64,000 nucleotides of DNA from Ancylobacter sp. WKF20. GTDB taxonomy: Bacteria > Pseudomonadota > Alphaproteobacteria > Rhizobiales > Xanthobacteraceae. Made by a program: the position numbers and the translations under genes. The stretch is taken from contig NZ_CP121679.1 of NCBI RefSeq assembly GCF_029760895.1, positions 1,798,001-1,862,000 on the forward strand. The letters are read 5' to 3'. Numbering within the stretch: position 1 is the stretch's first letter; each line of letters begins with the position of its first letter. Under the pieces are notes generated by a model. The model did no database searches. It was given only the letters and a program-made list of their open reading frames with translations, and had not been told where the DNA came from. Below, piece after piece: positions 36,958-45,783 of this stretch.

Positions 36958-37413
36958 TCAGGCCGTCAGCAGCGCCTTCACCGTACCGCTCGCCTTGCCG
37001 AAATCCATCACGCCGGTGTGACGCTCCTTGAGCGCCGCCATGGTGCGGCCCATGTCCTTGAGGCCGTGGGCGCCGATCTCGGCGATGATGGCGGCGATGG
37101 CGGCCTGCGCCTCGGCTTCCGTCATCTGCGTCGGCAGGAAGCCCTGAATGACCGCGATTTCCTCGCGCTCCTGCGTCGACAGGTCGGCGCGGCCGGCTTC
37201 CTCATAGACCTTGGCGGATTCTTCGCGCTGCTTGATCATCTTGGTCAGCAGGCCGAGCAGTTCCTCGTCGGAGAGCGGGTCCTTGCCATGGCCGCGCGCC
37301 TCGATGTCGCGGTCCTTGATCGCCGCATTGATGAGCCGAAGCGTACCGAGGCGGACCTTGTCGCCCGCCTTCATCGATTCCTTCAGCGAAGTGTTGATCT
37401 GGTCGCGCAGCAC
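36958..37413 (-). CDS. GatB/YqeY domain protein
   Basis: A 151-residue YqeY-family protein, related to the C-terminal tRNA-binding domain of GatB. It begins LRDQINTSLKESMKAGDKVRLGTLRLINAAIKDRDIE, contains LTKMIKQREESAKVYEEAGR and ends with the helical domain IGAHGLKDMGRTMAALKERHTG. The GTG at 37413 fits the normal family start; the longer frame to 37644 reaches the carA promoter region. It is divergent from carA, a frequent alphaproteobacterial arrangement. A role in tRNA amidation or binding is suspected but not shown for the family. Confidence 0.88.
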   Translation of the reverse strand: MLRDQINTSLKESMKAGDKVRLGTLRLINAAIKDRDIEARGHGKDPLSDEELLGLLTKMIKQREESAKVYEEAGRADLSTQEREEIAVIQGFLPTQMTEAEAQAAIAAIIAEIGAHGLKDMGRTMAALKERHTGVMDFGKASGTVKALLTA

Positions 37414-37663
37414 CTTGTCCGCCTTGCTTCTGTTCGCGGGCCGGCGGCGCCGGAAGCTCTCCGCGCCGTCCCACACCCACGAAGCGATTGTTGATCCGCC
37501 CCGAAAACCGGTCTCGAAACCTTCGGGCCGCCGCATCTCGGGCGTTCGGCCGCGATTTCGCCGCAGCCATCCGCTTGACGAGGGACAGATGCGCAGCCTG
37601 GAGGCTGGCGTCCGGCGCGGCGACCGACTAATTAGGGCACACAACGACAGGGAACAAGATCAG

Positions 37664-38869
37664 ATGAGCGGTAGCGCTGAACAGCTCTCCGGCGGCGACG
37701 TGTGGGCCGAGCCCCTCCCGACCGCCCTCCTCGTGCTGGCCGACGGCACCGTCCTTGAAGGCTTCGGGCTGGGTGCTACCGGCCAGGCAGTCGGCGAGGT
37801 GTGCTTCAACACGGCGATGACGGGTTATCAGGAAGTGCTGACCGATCCGTCCTATGCCGGGCAGATCATCACCTTCACCTTCCCCCATATCGGCAATGTC
37901 GGCACCAATGAGGACGACATCGAGACGATCTCGATGGCCGGCGCCTCGGGCGTGCGCGGCGTGGTGCTGCACTCGGCCATCACCGATCCCTCGAACTACC
38001 GCGCCACGCGCCATTTCGACCAGTGGCTGAAGGCCCGCGGCATTATCGCCATTTCCGGCATCGACACGCGCGCGCTCACCGCGCTGATCCGCGACAAGGG
38101 CATGCCCAATGCGGTGATCGCCCATGCCGCCGACGGGAAGTTCGATGTCGACGCGCTGAAGAAGGAAGCGGCCGCGTGGCCGGGCCTCGTCGGCATGGAC
38201 CTCGTGCCGATGGTCACCAGCGCCCAGCGCTTCACCTGGGACGAGACCCCGTGGCAGTGGCCGCAGGGCTATGGCCAGCAGACCGCGCCGGCCCACCACG
38301 TCGTCGCCATCGACTACGGCATCAAGCGCAACATCCTGCGCCTGCTCGCCCGCGCCGGCTGCAAGGTGACCGTGCTGCCGGCGACCGCCACCTCCGAGGA
38401 GGTGCTGGCGCTGAACCCGGACGGCGTGTTCCTCTCAAACGGCCCGGGCGACCCGGCGGCGACCGGCGAATATGCCGTGCCGGTGATTCGCGACATCATC
38501 GACCGGGGCATCCCGACCTTCGGCATCTGCCTCGGCCACCAGATGCTCGGCCTCGCCGTCGGCGGGCGCACGATGAAGATGCATCAGGGCCATCACGGCG
38601 CGAACCATCCGGTCAAGGACATGACCACCGGCAAGGTCGAGATCACCTCGATGAATCACGGCTTCGCGGTTGATCGCGACAGCCTGCCGGCCACCGCGCG
38701 CGAGACCCATGTCTCGCTGTTCGACGGCTCCAATGCCGGCATCGAGCTGACCGACAAGCCGGTCTTCTCCGTGCAGTATCACCCCGAGGCGAGCCCCGGC
38801 CCGCAGGACAGCCACTATCTGTTCGACCGCTTCGTCGATCTGATCGCGAAGACCAAGAAGGCGGCCTGA
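37664..38869 (+). CDS. carA: Carbamoyl-phosphate synthase small subunit (glutaminase)
   Basis: CarA supplies ammonia from glutamine to CarB for arginine and pyrimidine synthesis. The 401-residue protein has the N-terminal CPSase domain (LVLADGTVLEGFGLGATG, FNTAMTGYQEVLTDPSYAGQ) and a class I glutaminase domain with the nucleophile Cys289 in GICLGHQ, plus His373 and Glu375 in YHPEASPGP. The ATG at 37664 gives a typical start. carB lies 3.6 kb downstream in the same direction, separated by three unrelated genes. Confidence 0.96.
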   Translation: MSGSAEQLSGGDVWAEPLPTALLVLADGTVLEGFGLGATGQAVGEVCFNTAMTGYQEVLTDPSYAGQIITFTFPHIGNVGTNEDDIETISMAGASGVRGVVLHSAITDPSNYRATRHFDQWLKARGIIAISGIDTRALTALIRDKGMPNAVIAHAADGKFDVDALKKEAAAWPGLVGMDLVPMVTSAQRFTWDETPWQWPQGYGQQTAPAHHVVAIDYGIKRNILRLLARAGCKVTVLPATATSEEVLALNPDGVFLSNGPGDPAATGEYAVPVIRDIIDRGIPTFGICLGHQMLGLAVGGRTMKMHQGHHGANHPVKDMTTGKVEITSMNHGFAVDRDSLPATARETHVSLFDGSNAGIELTDKPVFSVQYHPEASPGPQDSHYLFDRFVDLIAKTKKAA

Positions 38870-38883
38870 ACAACGGAATTTGC

Positions 38884-38907
38884 GTGCCCGGCCCCGCGGC
38901 CGGGCAC
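38884..38907 (+). terminator. Hairpin after carA
   Basis: Perfect 10-bp stem GTGCCCGGCC / GGCCGGGCAC with a CCGC loop, 15 bp after the carA stop. There is no T-tract, so termination is plausible but not certain; it separates carA from the radical SAM gene. Confidence 0.5.
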
Positions 38908-38971
38908 CACACCCCGCGGGGGTTGACCGTCGCACAAGAGAACATAACATGAATGCGGAAGGAGTTTCCGC

Positions 38972-40186
38972 GTGGATGACACTCTCAAGGCCAAGCTCGG
39001 CATTCTTGCCGACGCCGCGAAATATGACGCCTCCTGCGCTTCCTCCGGCGGGCGCGGGCGCAAGGCGGAGAAGGACGGCATCGGCTCCACCACGGGCGCC
39101 GGCATCTGCCATTCCTACACGCCGGACGGGCGCTGCGTGTCGCTGCTGAAAATCCTGCTGACCAATTACTGCCTGTTCGACTGCGCCTATTGCATCAACC
39201 GTCGCTCCTCGAATGTGGAGCGGGCGCGGCTCTCGATCGACGAGGTGGTGCGCATCACGCTCGGCTTCTACAAGCGCAACTACATTGAGGGGCTGTTCCT
39301 CTCCTCCGGCATCATCCGCTCGCCCGATTACACGATGGAGCAGATGATGCTGGTCGCGCGCACGCTGCGCCGCGACCACGGCTTCGCCGGCTATATCCAC
39401 CTCAAGGCCATTCCCGAGGCGAGCCCCTGGCTCATCGAGCAGGCGGGACTCTGGGCCGACCGGCTCTCGGTCAATATCGAGCTTGCCTCCGACATCAGCC
39501 TGAAATCGCTGGCGCCGGAGAAGAACGCGCCCGGCATCAAGGCGACGATGGGCCAGATGCAGGAGCGCATTGTCGAAGCGAAGGAAGAGCGCCGCCGCTT
39601 CGCCCCGGCCGGGCAGAGCACGCAGATGATCGTCGGCGCGGACGACACCACGGACGAGACGGTGCTGCGCACCAGCGCCGGGCTTTATGGCGGCTATGGC
39701 CTGCGGCGCGTCTATTACTCAGCCTTCAGCCCGATCCCGGAGGCGAGCCGCGTGCTGCCGGTGAAAGCCGCCCCGCTCCGGCGCGAGAACAGGCTGTACC
39801 AAGCCGACTGGCTGCTGCGCTATTATGGCTTCAGCGTTGACGAGATCGCCGCCGGCGGCAGCGCGGGGATGCTCGACCTCGATATTGACCCCAAGCTCGC
39901 CTGGGCGCTGAAGCACCGCGACCGCTTCCCGGTCGATGTGAACGCCGCCGACCGCGAGCTTCTGCTGCGCGTGCCGGGCCTTGGCGCGCGGGCGGTCGAC
40001 CGCATCCTGCGCGCCCGGCGCCAGACGCGGCTGACGCTGGACGATATCGGACGGCTGAGCACGGGCGTGAAGCGGGCCCGCGCCTTCCTCATCACTGCCG
40101 ACCATCACCCGTTGAAACTGACCGACCGCTCGGATTTGCGCGAGCGCCTCGCACCGCCGGCGCGGCAGCTGGAGCTGTTCGCGTGA
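38972..40186 (+). CDS. Radical SAM protein of the putative DNA modification/repair family (UDG-linked)
   Basis: A 404-residue radical SAM protein. The iron-sulfur motif is C67-x3-C71-x2-C74 in LTNYCLFDCAYCINR. The core has LSSGIIRSPDYTMEQM, and the C-terminus (about 305-375) is a helix-hairpin-helix module (DVNAADRELLLRVPGLGARAVDRIL) that usually binds DNA. Extra Cys residues near 22, 46 and 55 could hold another ligand. This matches the family always found beside a UDG-like gene. GTG at 38972 has GGAAGGA 9 bp upstream. Its stop overlaps the next gene by 4 bp. The reaction is unknown. Confidence 0.88.
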   Translation: MDDTLKAKLGILADAAKYDASCASSGGRGRKAEKDGIGSTTGAGICHSYTPDGRCVSLLKILLTNYCLFDCAYCINRRSSNVERARLSIDEVVRITLGFYKRNYIEGLFLSSGIIRSPDYTMEQMMLVARTLRRDHGFAGYIHLKAIPEASPWLIEQAGLWADRLSVNIELASDISLKSLAPEKNAPGIKATMGQMQERIVEAKEERRRFAPAGQSTQMIVGADDTTDETVLRTSAGLYGGYGLRRVYYSAFSPIPEASRVLPVKAAPLRRENRLYQADWLLRYYGFSVDEIAAGGSAGMLDLDIDPKLAWALKHRDRFPVDVNAADRELLLRVPGLGARAVDRILRARRQTRLTLDDIGRLSTGVKRARAFLITADHHPLKLTDRSDLRERLAPPARQLELFA

Positions 40187-41661
40187 GCGGGTCAGGCGCG
40201 CCTGCCCGCGCCATGGAGGCCGTGAACCTGGCCTATGGCGCGGACCGCGACGGCTTCCGCCGCGCCGTACGGCGGCTGATTGCGGCGGGCGTGGCGCCAG
40301 AACATGTCGTCTGGCGGATGCGCGAGCCGGGTGAACCTGAGGCCGAGAGCGCCTCCGGCGATCTGTTCGGAGCCCTCCCCTCCGGCCCGGCCGAGGCGGG
40401 CGAGGGGGGCCCTGCCCTCGCGCTGCCGCGGGCGCTCGGCGAGCTCATCCCGCTGGTGCTCTGCCATCACGACCCCGACCGCTTCGCCCGGCTCTACACG
40501 CTGATCTGGCGTGCCCTACATGGCGAGCGGCGGCTCATCGACAATCCAGCCGACCCGCTGGTGCATCGGCTCGCGCTGATGGCAAAGGCGGTGCGGCGCG
40601 ACATTCACAAGATGCACGCCTTCGTGCGCTTCCGAGCGCTGGGCGCCGAGAACGGGCGCGAGCGCTTCGTCGCCTGGTTCGAGCCCGAGCATTTCATCGT
40701 CGAGGCGGCCGCCCCCTTCTTCCGCACGCGCTTTCCCGCCATGGACTGGGCGATCCTGACGCCGAAGGGGACGGTTGGGTGGGATGGGCAGGCGCTGACC
40801 TTCGGCCCGCCCGCCGCGCGCCCGCCTCTGCCGGAGGTGGACGGTTTCGAAGAGGGCTGGCTCGCCTATTACGCCAGCGCCTTCAACCCGGCCCGTGCCA
40901 ACCCGGCGATGATGCGCACGGAAATGCCGAAGAAGTATTGGGCCAACCTGCCGGAGGCGCGGCTGATCCCGGAGCTTCTGGAGAGCGCCCCGGCCCGCGT
41001 CGCCGCCATGATCGAGCGGGAGGCGCAGGCGCCGCGCAAGCGCGATCCCGCCAAGGCTGTCGCCGCCATGGCGCAGCAGGCGCCGTTGAGCCTTGCCGCG
41101 CTGAACGACCTCATCCGCGCGACGCCCTCCTTCGTGCCCGGCGGCACGCGCGCCGTGCTCGGCGAAGGGCCGGAAGGCGCCGCGCTGGCATTGGTGGGCG
41201 AGCAGCCGGGCGACCAGGAAGACATCGAGGGCCGCCCCTTCGTCGGCCCGGCCGGGCAGCTTCTCATGCGCGCGCTGGGTGAAGCGGGCCTGCAGCGCGA
41301 GCGGCTCTACCTCACCAATGCGGTGAAGCACTTCAAATTCGTGCCGCGCGGCAAAAGGCGCCTGCACCAGAAGCCGACCGGCGGCGAGGTGAAGCATTAT
41401 CGCTGGTGGCTGGAAGCGGAGCTCGATTTCGTGCGCCCGCGCCTCGTGGTCGCGCTCGGCGGCACAGCGGCGCTGGCGCTCACCGGGGAGGCGTTGGCGG
41501 TGACGCGGGAGCGCGGCCCGCGCGTGCTCGGCCGTCATCCGGGCTTCGTCACCACCCATCCATCCTATCTACTGCGCCTGCCCGATCCGGCCGCGCAGGC
41601 CGAAGGCTTCGCCGCTCTGGTGGCGGATCTGCGGCAGGCGCGCGAGCTGGCGGGCGGGTGA
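40183..41661 (+). CDS. DUF4130 - UdgX-type uracil-DNA binding fusion protein
   Basis: A 492-residue fusion. Residues 1-about 260 are the DUF4130 domain (YGADRDGFRRAVRRLI, AFVRFRALGAENGRERFVAWFEPEH). The rest is a family-4-like uracil-DNA glycosylase of the UdgX group. It has GEQPGDQED at 339-347, the R-loop KRRLH at 391-395 (the His that forms a covalent bond to uracil sites in UdgX), and HPSYLLR late in the protein. UdgX captures uracil in DNA covalently. The GTG start overlaps the radical SAM stop, so both proteins are made together. The role of DUF4130 is not known. Confidence 0.88.
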   Translation: MSGSGAPARAMEAVNLAYGADRDGFRRAVRRLIAAGVAPEHVVWRMREPGEPEAESASGDLFGALPSGPAEAGEGGPALALPRALGELIPLVLCHHDPDRFARLYTLIWRALHGERRLIDNPADPLVHRLALMAKAVRRDIHKMHAFVRFRALGAENGRERFVAWFEPEHFIVEAAAPFFRTRFPAMDWAILTPKGTVGWDGQALTFGPPAARPPLPEVDGFEEGWLAYYASAFNPARANPAMMRTEMPKKYWANLPEARLIPELLESAPARVAAMIEREAQAPRKRDPAKAVAAMAQQAPLSLAALNDLIRATPSFVPGGTRAVLGEGPEGAALALVGEQPGDQEDIEGRPFVGPAGQLLMRALGEAGLQRERLYLTNAVKHFKFVPRGKRRLHQKPTGGEVKHYRWWLEAELDFVRPRLVVALGGTAALALTGEALAVTRERGPRVLGRHPGFVTTHPSYLLRLPDPAAQAEGFAALVADLRQARELAGG

Positions 41662-41731
41662 GGTCCGCAAAGGGAACCGCCGCGCCGGCCTCCGGCTTGC
41701 CAATAGGCCGGGGAAGCATAGGAGGGACGCG

Positions 41732-42235
41732 ATGCCGATGATCGAGCCGGAGGCCCGGCTTTTTCCGCCTTCCGGCGGCGTGCCGAACCACCCGGCCTTC
41801 CCCGTGCTGATCTACCGCGCCGCGCTGCCGGCGGACGCCGCCGCCATTGAGGAACAGGTCGGCGCCAATGGCTGGGAGTGCCGCTGGCGCAACGGCGTGT
41901 TCGACTTTCACCACTTCCACTCGACAGCGCATGAGGCGCTGATGGTGGCGCGCGGGCAGGCCACCGTGCAGATCGGTGGCCCCGATGGTGTGAGTGTAGA
42001 GATCAAGGCGGGCGACGCGCTGGTGCTGCCGGCCGGCACCGGGCACAAGCGGCTCGCGGCAAGCGCGGATTTCCTCATCATCGGCGCCTACCCGCCCGGT
42101 CAGGACTACGACATCGAGCGGCCGGATGCGGCCGGCCTCGCGGCGGCGCAGGCCCGCATCGCCGCCGTCCCGCGCCCCGCAAGTGACCCGGTAACCGGCC
42201 CGGCGGGCGCCCTTACCCGGCTGTGGAACGGCTGA
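41732..42235 (+). CDS. Cupin protein (YjlB-like)
   Basis: A 167-residue single-domain cupin. It includes [30 protein letters not shown], which carries the first cupin motif with several His and Glu ligands, and [15 protein letters not shown], the second motif. Metal binding is therefore expected. It resembles the YjlB family of unknown function. It lies about 70 bp after the UdgX gene on the same strand. A strong intrinsic terminator follows before carB. Confidence 0.85.
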
Positions 42236-42378
42236 GCCGCCGGCGCTCCCCGTCTGTCGCGCCCAAGCTATGCACGGACGGGACGCCGCGTGCCCTTCCC
42301 CCGGGGGGGAATCTGGTTTATGGGAAGCCCCCAATTGCGGGGTCCGACCTCGCCCAGAAAGTTCAATCCGGGTCCACC

Positions 42379-42408
42379 AAAGGACGCGTCACCCAACGCG
42401 TCCTTTTT
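42379..42408 (+). terminator. Strong rho-independent terminator or attenuator just before carB
   Basis: Perfect 11-bp stem AAAGGACGCGT / ACGCGTCCTTT with a 6-nt loop and a TTTTT tract. It ends 40 bp before the carB ATG and 144 bp after the cupin stop. It may end the cupin transcript or attenuate carB. Confidence 0.85.
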
Positions 42409-42447
42409 CGTGCGCCCGGACCAATTGCGCGAGCCGCACGGGATCCG

Positions 42448-45783
<3,336 letters not shown>

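What the first reader, a model, noticed from the sequence alone, without database searches (positions are those of the whole stretch)
38972..41661. Coupled radical SAM - DUF4130/UdgX pair: a candidate uncharacterised DNA repair or modification pathway
The two genes overlap by 4 bp. The first product has a radical SAM cluster motif (C67-x3-C71-x2-C74) and a C-terminal helix-hairpin-helix DNA-binding module. The second fuses DUF4130 with a UdgX-type domain whose R-loop reads KRRLH at 391-395. UdgX is known to trap uracil in DNA through that His. A radical enzyme with a DNA-binding tail next to a covalent uracil-capturing protein suggests that one makes or resolves the lesion handled by the other. 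The chemistry is not established.
Basis: partly seen in the sequence, partly recalled or inferred. Interest (0 to 1): 0.85.

Follow-up and report, generated by a model that had tools for sequence, protein, structure and literature searches.

The report
SOS-controlled clamp-tethered radical repair pair
Two overlapping bacterial genes make a radical enzyme and a uracil-trapping partner that look like a DNA-damage response module steered to the replication machinery; the gene pair is already known but its chemistry is not, and the new clues here make it testable.

Summary
In detail: two ORFs overlapping by 4 bp, a radical SAM protein with a helix-hairpin-helix segment and a DUF4130-UdgX fusion with an intact KRRLH loop. 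The pair is not new: NCBIfam names it (TIGR03916, TIGR03915, TIGR03914), and papers of 2013 and 2021 link such domains and report SOS control.

What the tools add:
(1) The core is radical SAM + DUF4130. Of 398 genomes, 84 have the radical SAM protein and all 84 have DUF4130, within 720 bp in 82. UdgX is usual in Alphaproteobacteria but optional, which weakens the idea that one enzyme makes or resolves the other's lesion.
(2) LexA boxes proper to each lineage lie upstream (exact in 47 of 48 alphaproteobacterial loci; the exception is the window, 7 of 8).
(3) The radical SAM protein ends in a sliding-clamp-like motif (QLELF); forms of it occur in 125 of 142 relatives, against 4.8 expected from shuffled tails.
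(4) It has exactly six cysteines, two triads, invariant in 41 aligned sequences.
(5) The window's UdgX belongs to a clade without the Fe-S ligand cysteines.

Most likely: an SOS-induced, clamp-recruited DNA-damage enzyme. Lesion and chemistry remain unknown.

The parts
38923..38928 (+). -35-like hexamer TTGACC, 16 bp before the -10-like TAACAT
   Evidence: sequence; of 13 loci looked at, 5 have such a hexamer (5 of 6 matches) 17-18 bp before the box start
38940..38954 (+). LexA-box-like GAACATAACATGAAT (7 of 8 of GAACN7GAAC); contains the -10-like TAACAT (38945-38950)
   Evidence: exact box at nearly the same place in the same-genus locus L051; exact boxes near lexA and recA of this genome; the 15-mer occurs once in the genome
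38955..38971 (+). inverted repeat GCGGAA-GGAGT-TTCCGC overlapping the Shine-Dalgarno; a hairpin of different sequence lies at the same place in L051
38972..40186 (+). radical SAM protein, TIGR03916 (404 aa)
39035..39136 (+). codons 22-55: N-terminal Cys triad C22, C46, C55, invariant in 41 aligned sequences (window included); possible auxiliary Fe-S cluster
   Evidence: region 20-56 has pLDDT under 50
39170..39193 (+). radical SAM motif C67-x3-C71-x2-C74
39932..40024 (+). helix-hairpin-helix segment (residues 321-351)
   Evidence: HHH_3, sub-threshold
40166..40180 (+). C-terminal QLELF (399-403), sliding-clamp-binding-like motif in a disordered tail
   Evidence: consensus QL[S/D]LF or QxxLF from passages of PMC12309361
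40183..41661 (+). DUF4130-UdgX fusion protein (492 aa)
40474..40956 (+). DUF4130 domain (98-258); G24, R149, F150, R183, R238, P249, E258 of this protein are invariant in the 28 rows of A5
41161..41631 (+). UdgX-type UDG domain (327-483), without Cys
41197..41211 (+). motif A GEQPG (339-343)
41353..41367 (+). R-loop KRRLH (391-395); His395 aligns with the cross-linking His109 of M. smegmatis UdgX
41557..41577 (+). motif B HPSYLLR (459-465)

Best explanation
A LexA-controlled DNA-damage module. After damage LexA is cleaved and the operon is made (inferred from operators). The radical SAM protein, which has a helix-hairpin-helix segment and a flexible tail ending in QLELF, is brought to DNA at or behind the fork by binding the sliding clamp (inferred from the motif). 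With its near-constant partner DUF4130 it does 5'-deoxyadenosyl-radical chemistry on a damaged nucleotide, probably helped by a second Fe-S cluster on C22/C46/C55 (inferred). In lineages where UdgX is fused to DUF4130, that domain excises uracil and holds the resulting abasic site covalently through His395 (inferred from intact catalytic residues), shielding it near the same complex. Shown by computation: gene pairing, operators, motif conservation, domain make-up. Not shown: the lesion, the reaction, clamp binding, cross-linking.
For: Families: 542.3, 201.7 and 279 bits, all above cut-off. Co-occurrence: radical SAM 84 of 398, DUF4130 87 of 398, both 84; within 720 bp in 82 of 84. Operators within 120 bp upstream: alpha GAACN7GAAC (35) or only GTTCN7GTTC (12), together exact in 47 of 48 fetched loci (0 of 239 coding control segments for each orientation); CTGTN8ACAG in 7 of 11 other Proteobacteria (0 of 55); GAACN4GTTC in 26 of 82 mostly clostridial loci (1 of 410); no type was found upstream in another of these groups. 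Exact boxes lie 69 bp before the lexA match and 109 bp before the recA match in this genome. Clamp motif: strict form in 107 of 142 tails and loose form in 125 of 142, against 1.2 and 4.8 from shuffled tails (both patterns were written after I had seen tails); Q399 invariant and F403 at least 90% in A3 (41 rows). L049 and L050, not in the 142, also carry it (QLSIF, QLSLW). Six and only six Cys, all invariant in A3. UdgX residues matching Msm E52, Q53, D56, D59, F65, N91, K94, R107, H109, H178 and R184 all present (their roles). SOS control of a COG1573-COG4277 operon is in print.
Against: The window's own box has one mismatch and is the only one of 48 alpha loci without an exact box; a second one-mismatch match, GAAGGCGGCCTGAAC, lies in the same upstream stretch, and I estimate one such match in about 8% of random 200-bp stretches per orientation (uniform base composition). 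Exact boxes are common in the genome: 89 against 54 for the reversed control. Motif conservation is not proof of clamp binding; six of 142 tails end in QLGFGF, a poorer match, and a few have nothing recognisable. Pfam radical SAM and HHH hits are sub-threshold. The N-terminal Cys region is modelled with low confidence. Three genomes carry DUF4130 without the radical SAM protein; in the class survey one radical SAM match, at a contig end, had no DUF4130 (G045). 56 of 82 mostly clostridial loci and 4 of 11 other proteobacterial loci lack the exact box.
Confidence: 0.7

Rival explanations
1. Spore-photoproduct-lyase-like enzyme: direct reversal of a pyrimidine photoproduct, as the label 'SplB-like photolyase' in PMC3765255 implies.
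For: Radical SAM fold, SOS operators, published label (passages); splB itself is reported as SOS-regulated (passages).
Against: The only NCBIfam family reported for it is TIGR03916. No Cys lies after C74, whereas B. subtilis SPL uses a Cys well after the cluster motif as hydrogen donor (recalled). It has an extra Cys triad. Several relatives are MAGs from gut, rumen or rectum by their titles, where UV is not the obvious lesion.
Confidence: 0.15
2. One reading: the radical enzyme makes, releases or repairs the UdgX-DNA adduct or the lesion UdgX recognises.
For: Shared operon; fusion of UdgX to DUF4130 in 40 of 48 alpha loci and 6 of 10 genomes of the class survey.
Against: The pair without UdgX is common: 5 of 48 alpha loci and 7 of 11 other proteobacterial loci, 3 of 10 genomes with no UdgX over the cut-off, none found in 86 loci. 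UdgX without the pair: 9 of 16 genomes.
Confidence: 0.06
3. Constitutive DNA modification or anti-phage defence module.
For: NCBIfam name 'putative DNA modification/repair'; relatives in 10 of 50,697 phage records and 158 of 72,556 plasmid records.
Against: No PADLOC hit; SOS operators; site between carA and carB here and in the congener.
Confidence: 0.04
4. Enzyme on a non-DNA substrate (tRNA, protein, cofactor), like the nearest solved folds MqnE, lipoyl synthase and HydE.
Against: HHH segment, clamp-like motif, SOS operators, near-constant partner fused in places to a uracil-DNA glycosylase.
Confidence: 0.05

Closest known systems
TIGR03916 (rSAM_link_UDG) + TIGR03915 (SAM_7_link_chp)
   Same: Both proteins score far above the curated cut-offs; adjacent genes
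   Different: Nothing: the pair belongs here. I found no reaction for the family in the searches made (open-licence papers only)
M. smegmatis UdgX (6ajo, 6io9)
   Different: Fused to DUF4130; no Cys in the UDG part, Msm Cys120 is Tyr406; operon with a radical SAM gene and a LexA-like box
Spore photoproduct lyase (SplB)
   Same: Radical SAM, DNA-repair setting, SOS link
   Different: No Cys after the cluster motif, an extra N-terminal Cys triad, HHH segment and clamp-like tail (features of SPL recalled)
Lipoyl synthase / MiaB / RimO (radical SAM enzymes with an N-terminal three-Cys auxiliary cluster; recalled)
   Different: Cys spacing CX23CX8C, not CX4CX5C; HHH and clamp-like tail; the model is low-confidence there
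Other SOS-controlled clamp-using systems such as ImuB-DnaE2 (recalled)
   Same: LexA control and sliding-clamp motif
   Different: A radical enzyme rather than a polymerase complex

Membership tests
TIGR03916 | score over the curated cut-off 343.5 | tested here: met
   542.3 bits
TIGR03915 / DUF4130 | score over the curated cut-off 112.25 | tested here: met
   201.7 bits
UdgX (TIGR03914) | score over the cut-off 189.95; GEQPG, KRRxH and HPSxLLR motifs | tested here: met
   279 bits; motifs at 339, 391 and 459
UdgX (TIGR03914) | [4Fe-4S] ligand cysteines, as M. smegmatis UdgX is described | tested here: not met
   no Cys in the UDG part. The other UdgX features are met, so it is called a cluster-less variant, not a typical UdgX
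UdgX (TIGR03914) | covalent bond to abasic DNA through the R-loop His | not testable with these tools
   needs a gel assay
Radical SAM superfamily | CX3CX2C and radical SAM fold | tested here: met
Spore photoproduct lyase | hydrogen-donor Cys C-terminal to the cluster motif (recalled) | tested here: not met
   no Cys after C74
Spore photoproduct lyase | matched by an SPL family model (whether the library holds one was not checked) | tested here: inconclusive
   only TIGR03916 listed
Lipoyl synthase | N-terminal CX4CX5C (recalled) | tested here: not met
   spacing is CX23CX8C
LexA regulon | GAACN7GAAC-type box in the promoter | tested here: inconclusive
   window 7 of 8; exact in 47 of 47 other fetched alpha loci
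Sliding-clamp clients | QL[S/D]LF or QxxLF motif, accessible | tested here: met
   QLELF 399-403 in a tail with pLDDT under 50; consensus from passages of PMC12309361
Sliding-clamp clients | measured binding to DnaN | not testable with these tools
   needs a binding assay
Anti-phage defence (PADLOC) | profile match | tested here: not met
   0 families for both proteins at E 0.01

The most novel reading that the evidence does not exclude
A sliding-clamp client among radical SAM enzymes: a two-cluster (six-Cys) enzyme loaded on the clamp during the SOS response that processes a DNA lesion by chemistry different from spore photoproduct lyase (perhaps of the auxiliary-cluster type seen in lipoyl synthase and MiaB), with a DUF4130 partner and, in one clade, a UdgX domain that traps uracil sites without an Fe-S cluster.
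Probability: 0.4. Interest if true: 0.88.

Novelty: new variant of a known kind. Interest (0 to 1): 0.62.

Why it matters
In this sample 84 of 398 genomes of the phylum carry the pair, and DUF4130 lay beside the gene in 80 of 86 further loci, mostly Clostridia; yet the paper searches made here showed no reaction for it. If the clamp-like tail and LexA boxes mean what they seem to, the lesion should be sought at replication forks, and a peptide-binding assay, a deletion and an anaerobic assay become direct tests. The cluster-less UdgX clade would show that uracil trapping needs no Fe-S cluster, which is useful for uracil-mapping tools.

Tried and rejected
Minus-strand loci from the genome search are not turned to the gene; my first box scan read them wrongly and was redone.

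Rows dropped before counts: L011 (shortened radical SAM gene, G182) was left out of the 48 alpha loci, although it too has an exact box; L047, L050 and L151 were in none of the three box groups; L049 and L050 were not in the 142 tails and were looked at later. I had first taken L050 to lack the clamp-like tail; one search shows QLSLW there, so the tail may be older than the pairing with DUF4130.

Fold of DUF4130: the list from the protein-2 model was filled by UDG structures, the viral library gave mostly UDG or polymerase rows at the top, and a profile search of the PDB gave one weak row, 9b2z, E 0.007, profile positions 8-118, which I take as chance. No spore photoproduct lyase row is among the 50 shown or; that excludes nothing.

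Fe-S loss as a trait of all fusions: rejected. Of 59 rows (those passing a motif filter), the script labelled 42 fused and 17 standalone, but six labelled standalone (L022, L030, L041, L042, L061, L063) are fused. Put right, 33 of 48 fused rows keep the Cys and 15 lack them; of 11 standalone rows 8 keep them, 2 lack them, 1 is partial. Four genomes appear twice, and 8 rows are homologues that I chose.

Defence reading: no PADLOC hit. Phage or plasmid origin: few phage records, and the window copy lies between carA and carB.

PMC9380542 (passages) lists a LexA-bound radical SAM gene in Streptomyces, vnz_31145; I did not test whether it is this family.

Literature: ten searches used, of open-licence papers only. 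(radical SAM with clamp-binding motif; radical SAM with sliding clamp and SOS response) listed 0 and 2 papers; the two are on other subjects by title. Two papers cited for UdgX in PMC10359453 were not held.

Full report
What is there. The two ORFs are 38972-40186 and 40183-41661 on the + strand, overlapping by 4 bp. The first matches TIGR03916, 'putative DNA modification/repair radical SAM protein' (542.3 bits, cut-off 343.5); the second matches TIGR03915 (201.7, cut-off 112.25) and TIGR03914, UdgX (279, cut-off 189.95). Pfam gives Radical_SAM and HHH_3 below their gathering scores, and DUF4130 and UDG well above. One match to TIGR03916 was found in the genome. The closest named relatives of both proteins are Ancylobacter; the same-genus genome G267 has a contig of the same length (488,274) as that of an Ancylobacter polymorphus homologue, so the window is probably an Ancylobacter (inference).

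The pair is a known, uncharacterised family pair. In a sample of 398 genomes of the phylum, the radical SAM model is over its cut-off in 84 and DUF4130 in 87; all 84 have both, within 720 bp in 82, and about 2.8 and 3.1 kb apart in G413 and G401. In the class survey of 190 genomes each is over cut-off in 10, nine with both; G045 has the radical SAM gene alone, at a contig end, and G182 has DUF4130 beside a shortened radical SAM gene. [quoted passage not shown] that COG4277 is this radical SAM family is my recollection. So the linkage and the SOS link are in print.

UdgX is an add-on. In the class survey, DUF4130 is over cut-off in 10 genomes; UdgX is fused in 6, elsewhere in 1 (G033), and below cut-off in 3 (G162, G175, G182). 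UdgX is over cut-off in 16 genomes, 9 of them without the pair. In the 48 fetched alphaproteobacterial loci UdgX is fused in frame in 40, out of frame in 1 (L036), absent in 5; L005 ends too soon and L010 has no DUF4130. In 11 loci of other Proteobacteria it is fused in 4 and absent in 7. None was found in the 86 loci. So the fusion is the usual form in Alphaproteobacteria, but the pair occurs without it elsewhere, which argues against a scheme in which the radical enzyme exists to serve UdgX.

Regulation. Alphaproteobacterial LexA boxes are direct repeats GTTCN7GTTC (recalled). Within 120 bp upstream of the gene, 47 of 48 fetched alphaproteobacterial loci have an exact box, 35 as GAACN7GAAC and 12 only in the other orientation; five coding segments per locus gave 0 of 239 in each orientation. 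In other Proteobacteria an exact CTGTN8ACAG occurs in 7 of 11 (0 of 55 control), and in mostly clostridial loci GAACN4GTTC in 26 of 82 (1 of 410). No box type was found upstream in another of these groups. The loci were those in hand, chosen by score and then by hand, so they are not a random sample and many are related. The one alpha locus without an exact box is the window: GAACATAACATGAAT, 7 of 8, at 38940-38954, over the -10-like hexamer and starting 17 bp after the start of TTGACC; L003 and L004 have the same layout, and the congener L051 has an exact box at nearly the same place. A second one-mismatch match lies further upstream in the window. Exact boxes lie 69 bp before the lexA match and 109 bp before the recA match of this genome. 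Genome-wide, exact boxes number 89 against 54 for the reversed control pattern, so a box alone is weak evidence.

Clamp tail. The protein ends QLELFA. The consensus clamp-binding motif is QL[S/D]LF or QxxLF (PMC12309361, passages; PMC4549789 gives QLxLF, passages). In 142 sequences (window included) a strict form was found in 107 tails (after residue 375) and a loose form in 125; shuffling each tail gives 1.2 and 4.8 on average, and the first 375 residues hold 11 and 35 such matches in 53,147 residues. I wrote both patterns after seeing tails. Of the remaining 17, six end in QLGFGF, four have six-residue forms (QLSLAF, QMSLAL, QMALAL, QLILPF), L010 is cut by a contig end, and the rest have poorer or no matches. 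In alignment A3 (41 sequences) Q399 is invariant and F403 at least 90%, in a tail that is otherwise variable and modelled as disordered. Searches showed no report of this.

Judgement. The family is known; no reaction for it was found. The evidence places the radical SAM-DUF4130 core in the SOS response and, by motif, at the sliding clamp, with UdgX as an optional trap. The chemistry is open; spore-photoproduct-lyase-like repair is the published label but fits the cysteine pattern poorly.

Noticed in passing
38955-38971: A perfect inverted repeat covers the Shine-Dalgarno between the LexA-like box and the start codon; L051 has a hairpin of different sequence and the same predicted energy (-11.2 kcal/mol), perhaps a translational control.
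   Followed up: partly
37211-45783: The operon and a cupin gene (41732-42235) sit between carA and carB; the same order is seen in the congener L051.
   Followed up: partly
L011 (G182:C1:4828094-4831465): A DUF4130 gene stands beside a shortened radical SAM match (positions 270-399 of the model), still with an exact upstream box.
   Followed up: no
G373, G389, G458 (no locus): DUF4130 over cut-off without the radical SAM gene, all in one genus of the window's family.
   Followed up: no
L190, L191: UdgX proteins without DUF4130 and without Cys that fall inside the Cys-less fusion clade, perhaps split from a fusion.
   Followed up: no
L050 (Gemmatirosa plasmid): A distant relative with a clamp-like QLSLW but without the N-terminal Cys triad and without DUF4130 in the locus; perhaps a sister family.
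   Followed up: partly
L036: DUF4130 and UdgX matches lie in different frames, perhaps a frameshift or a split gene.
   Followed up: no
MT839232.1 and seven other unnamed phage records from human faeces, and two Acinetobacter phage records: Relatives of the radical SAM protein in phage records; some may be bacterial fragments.
   Followed up: no
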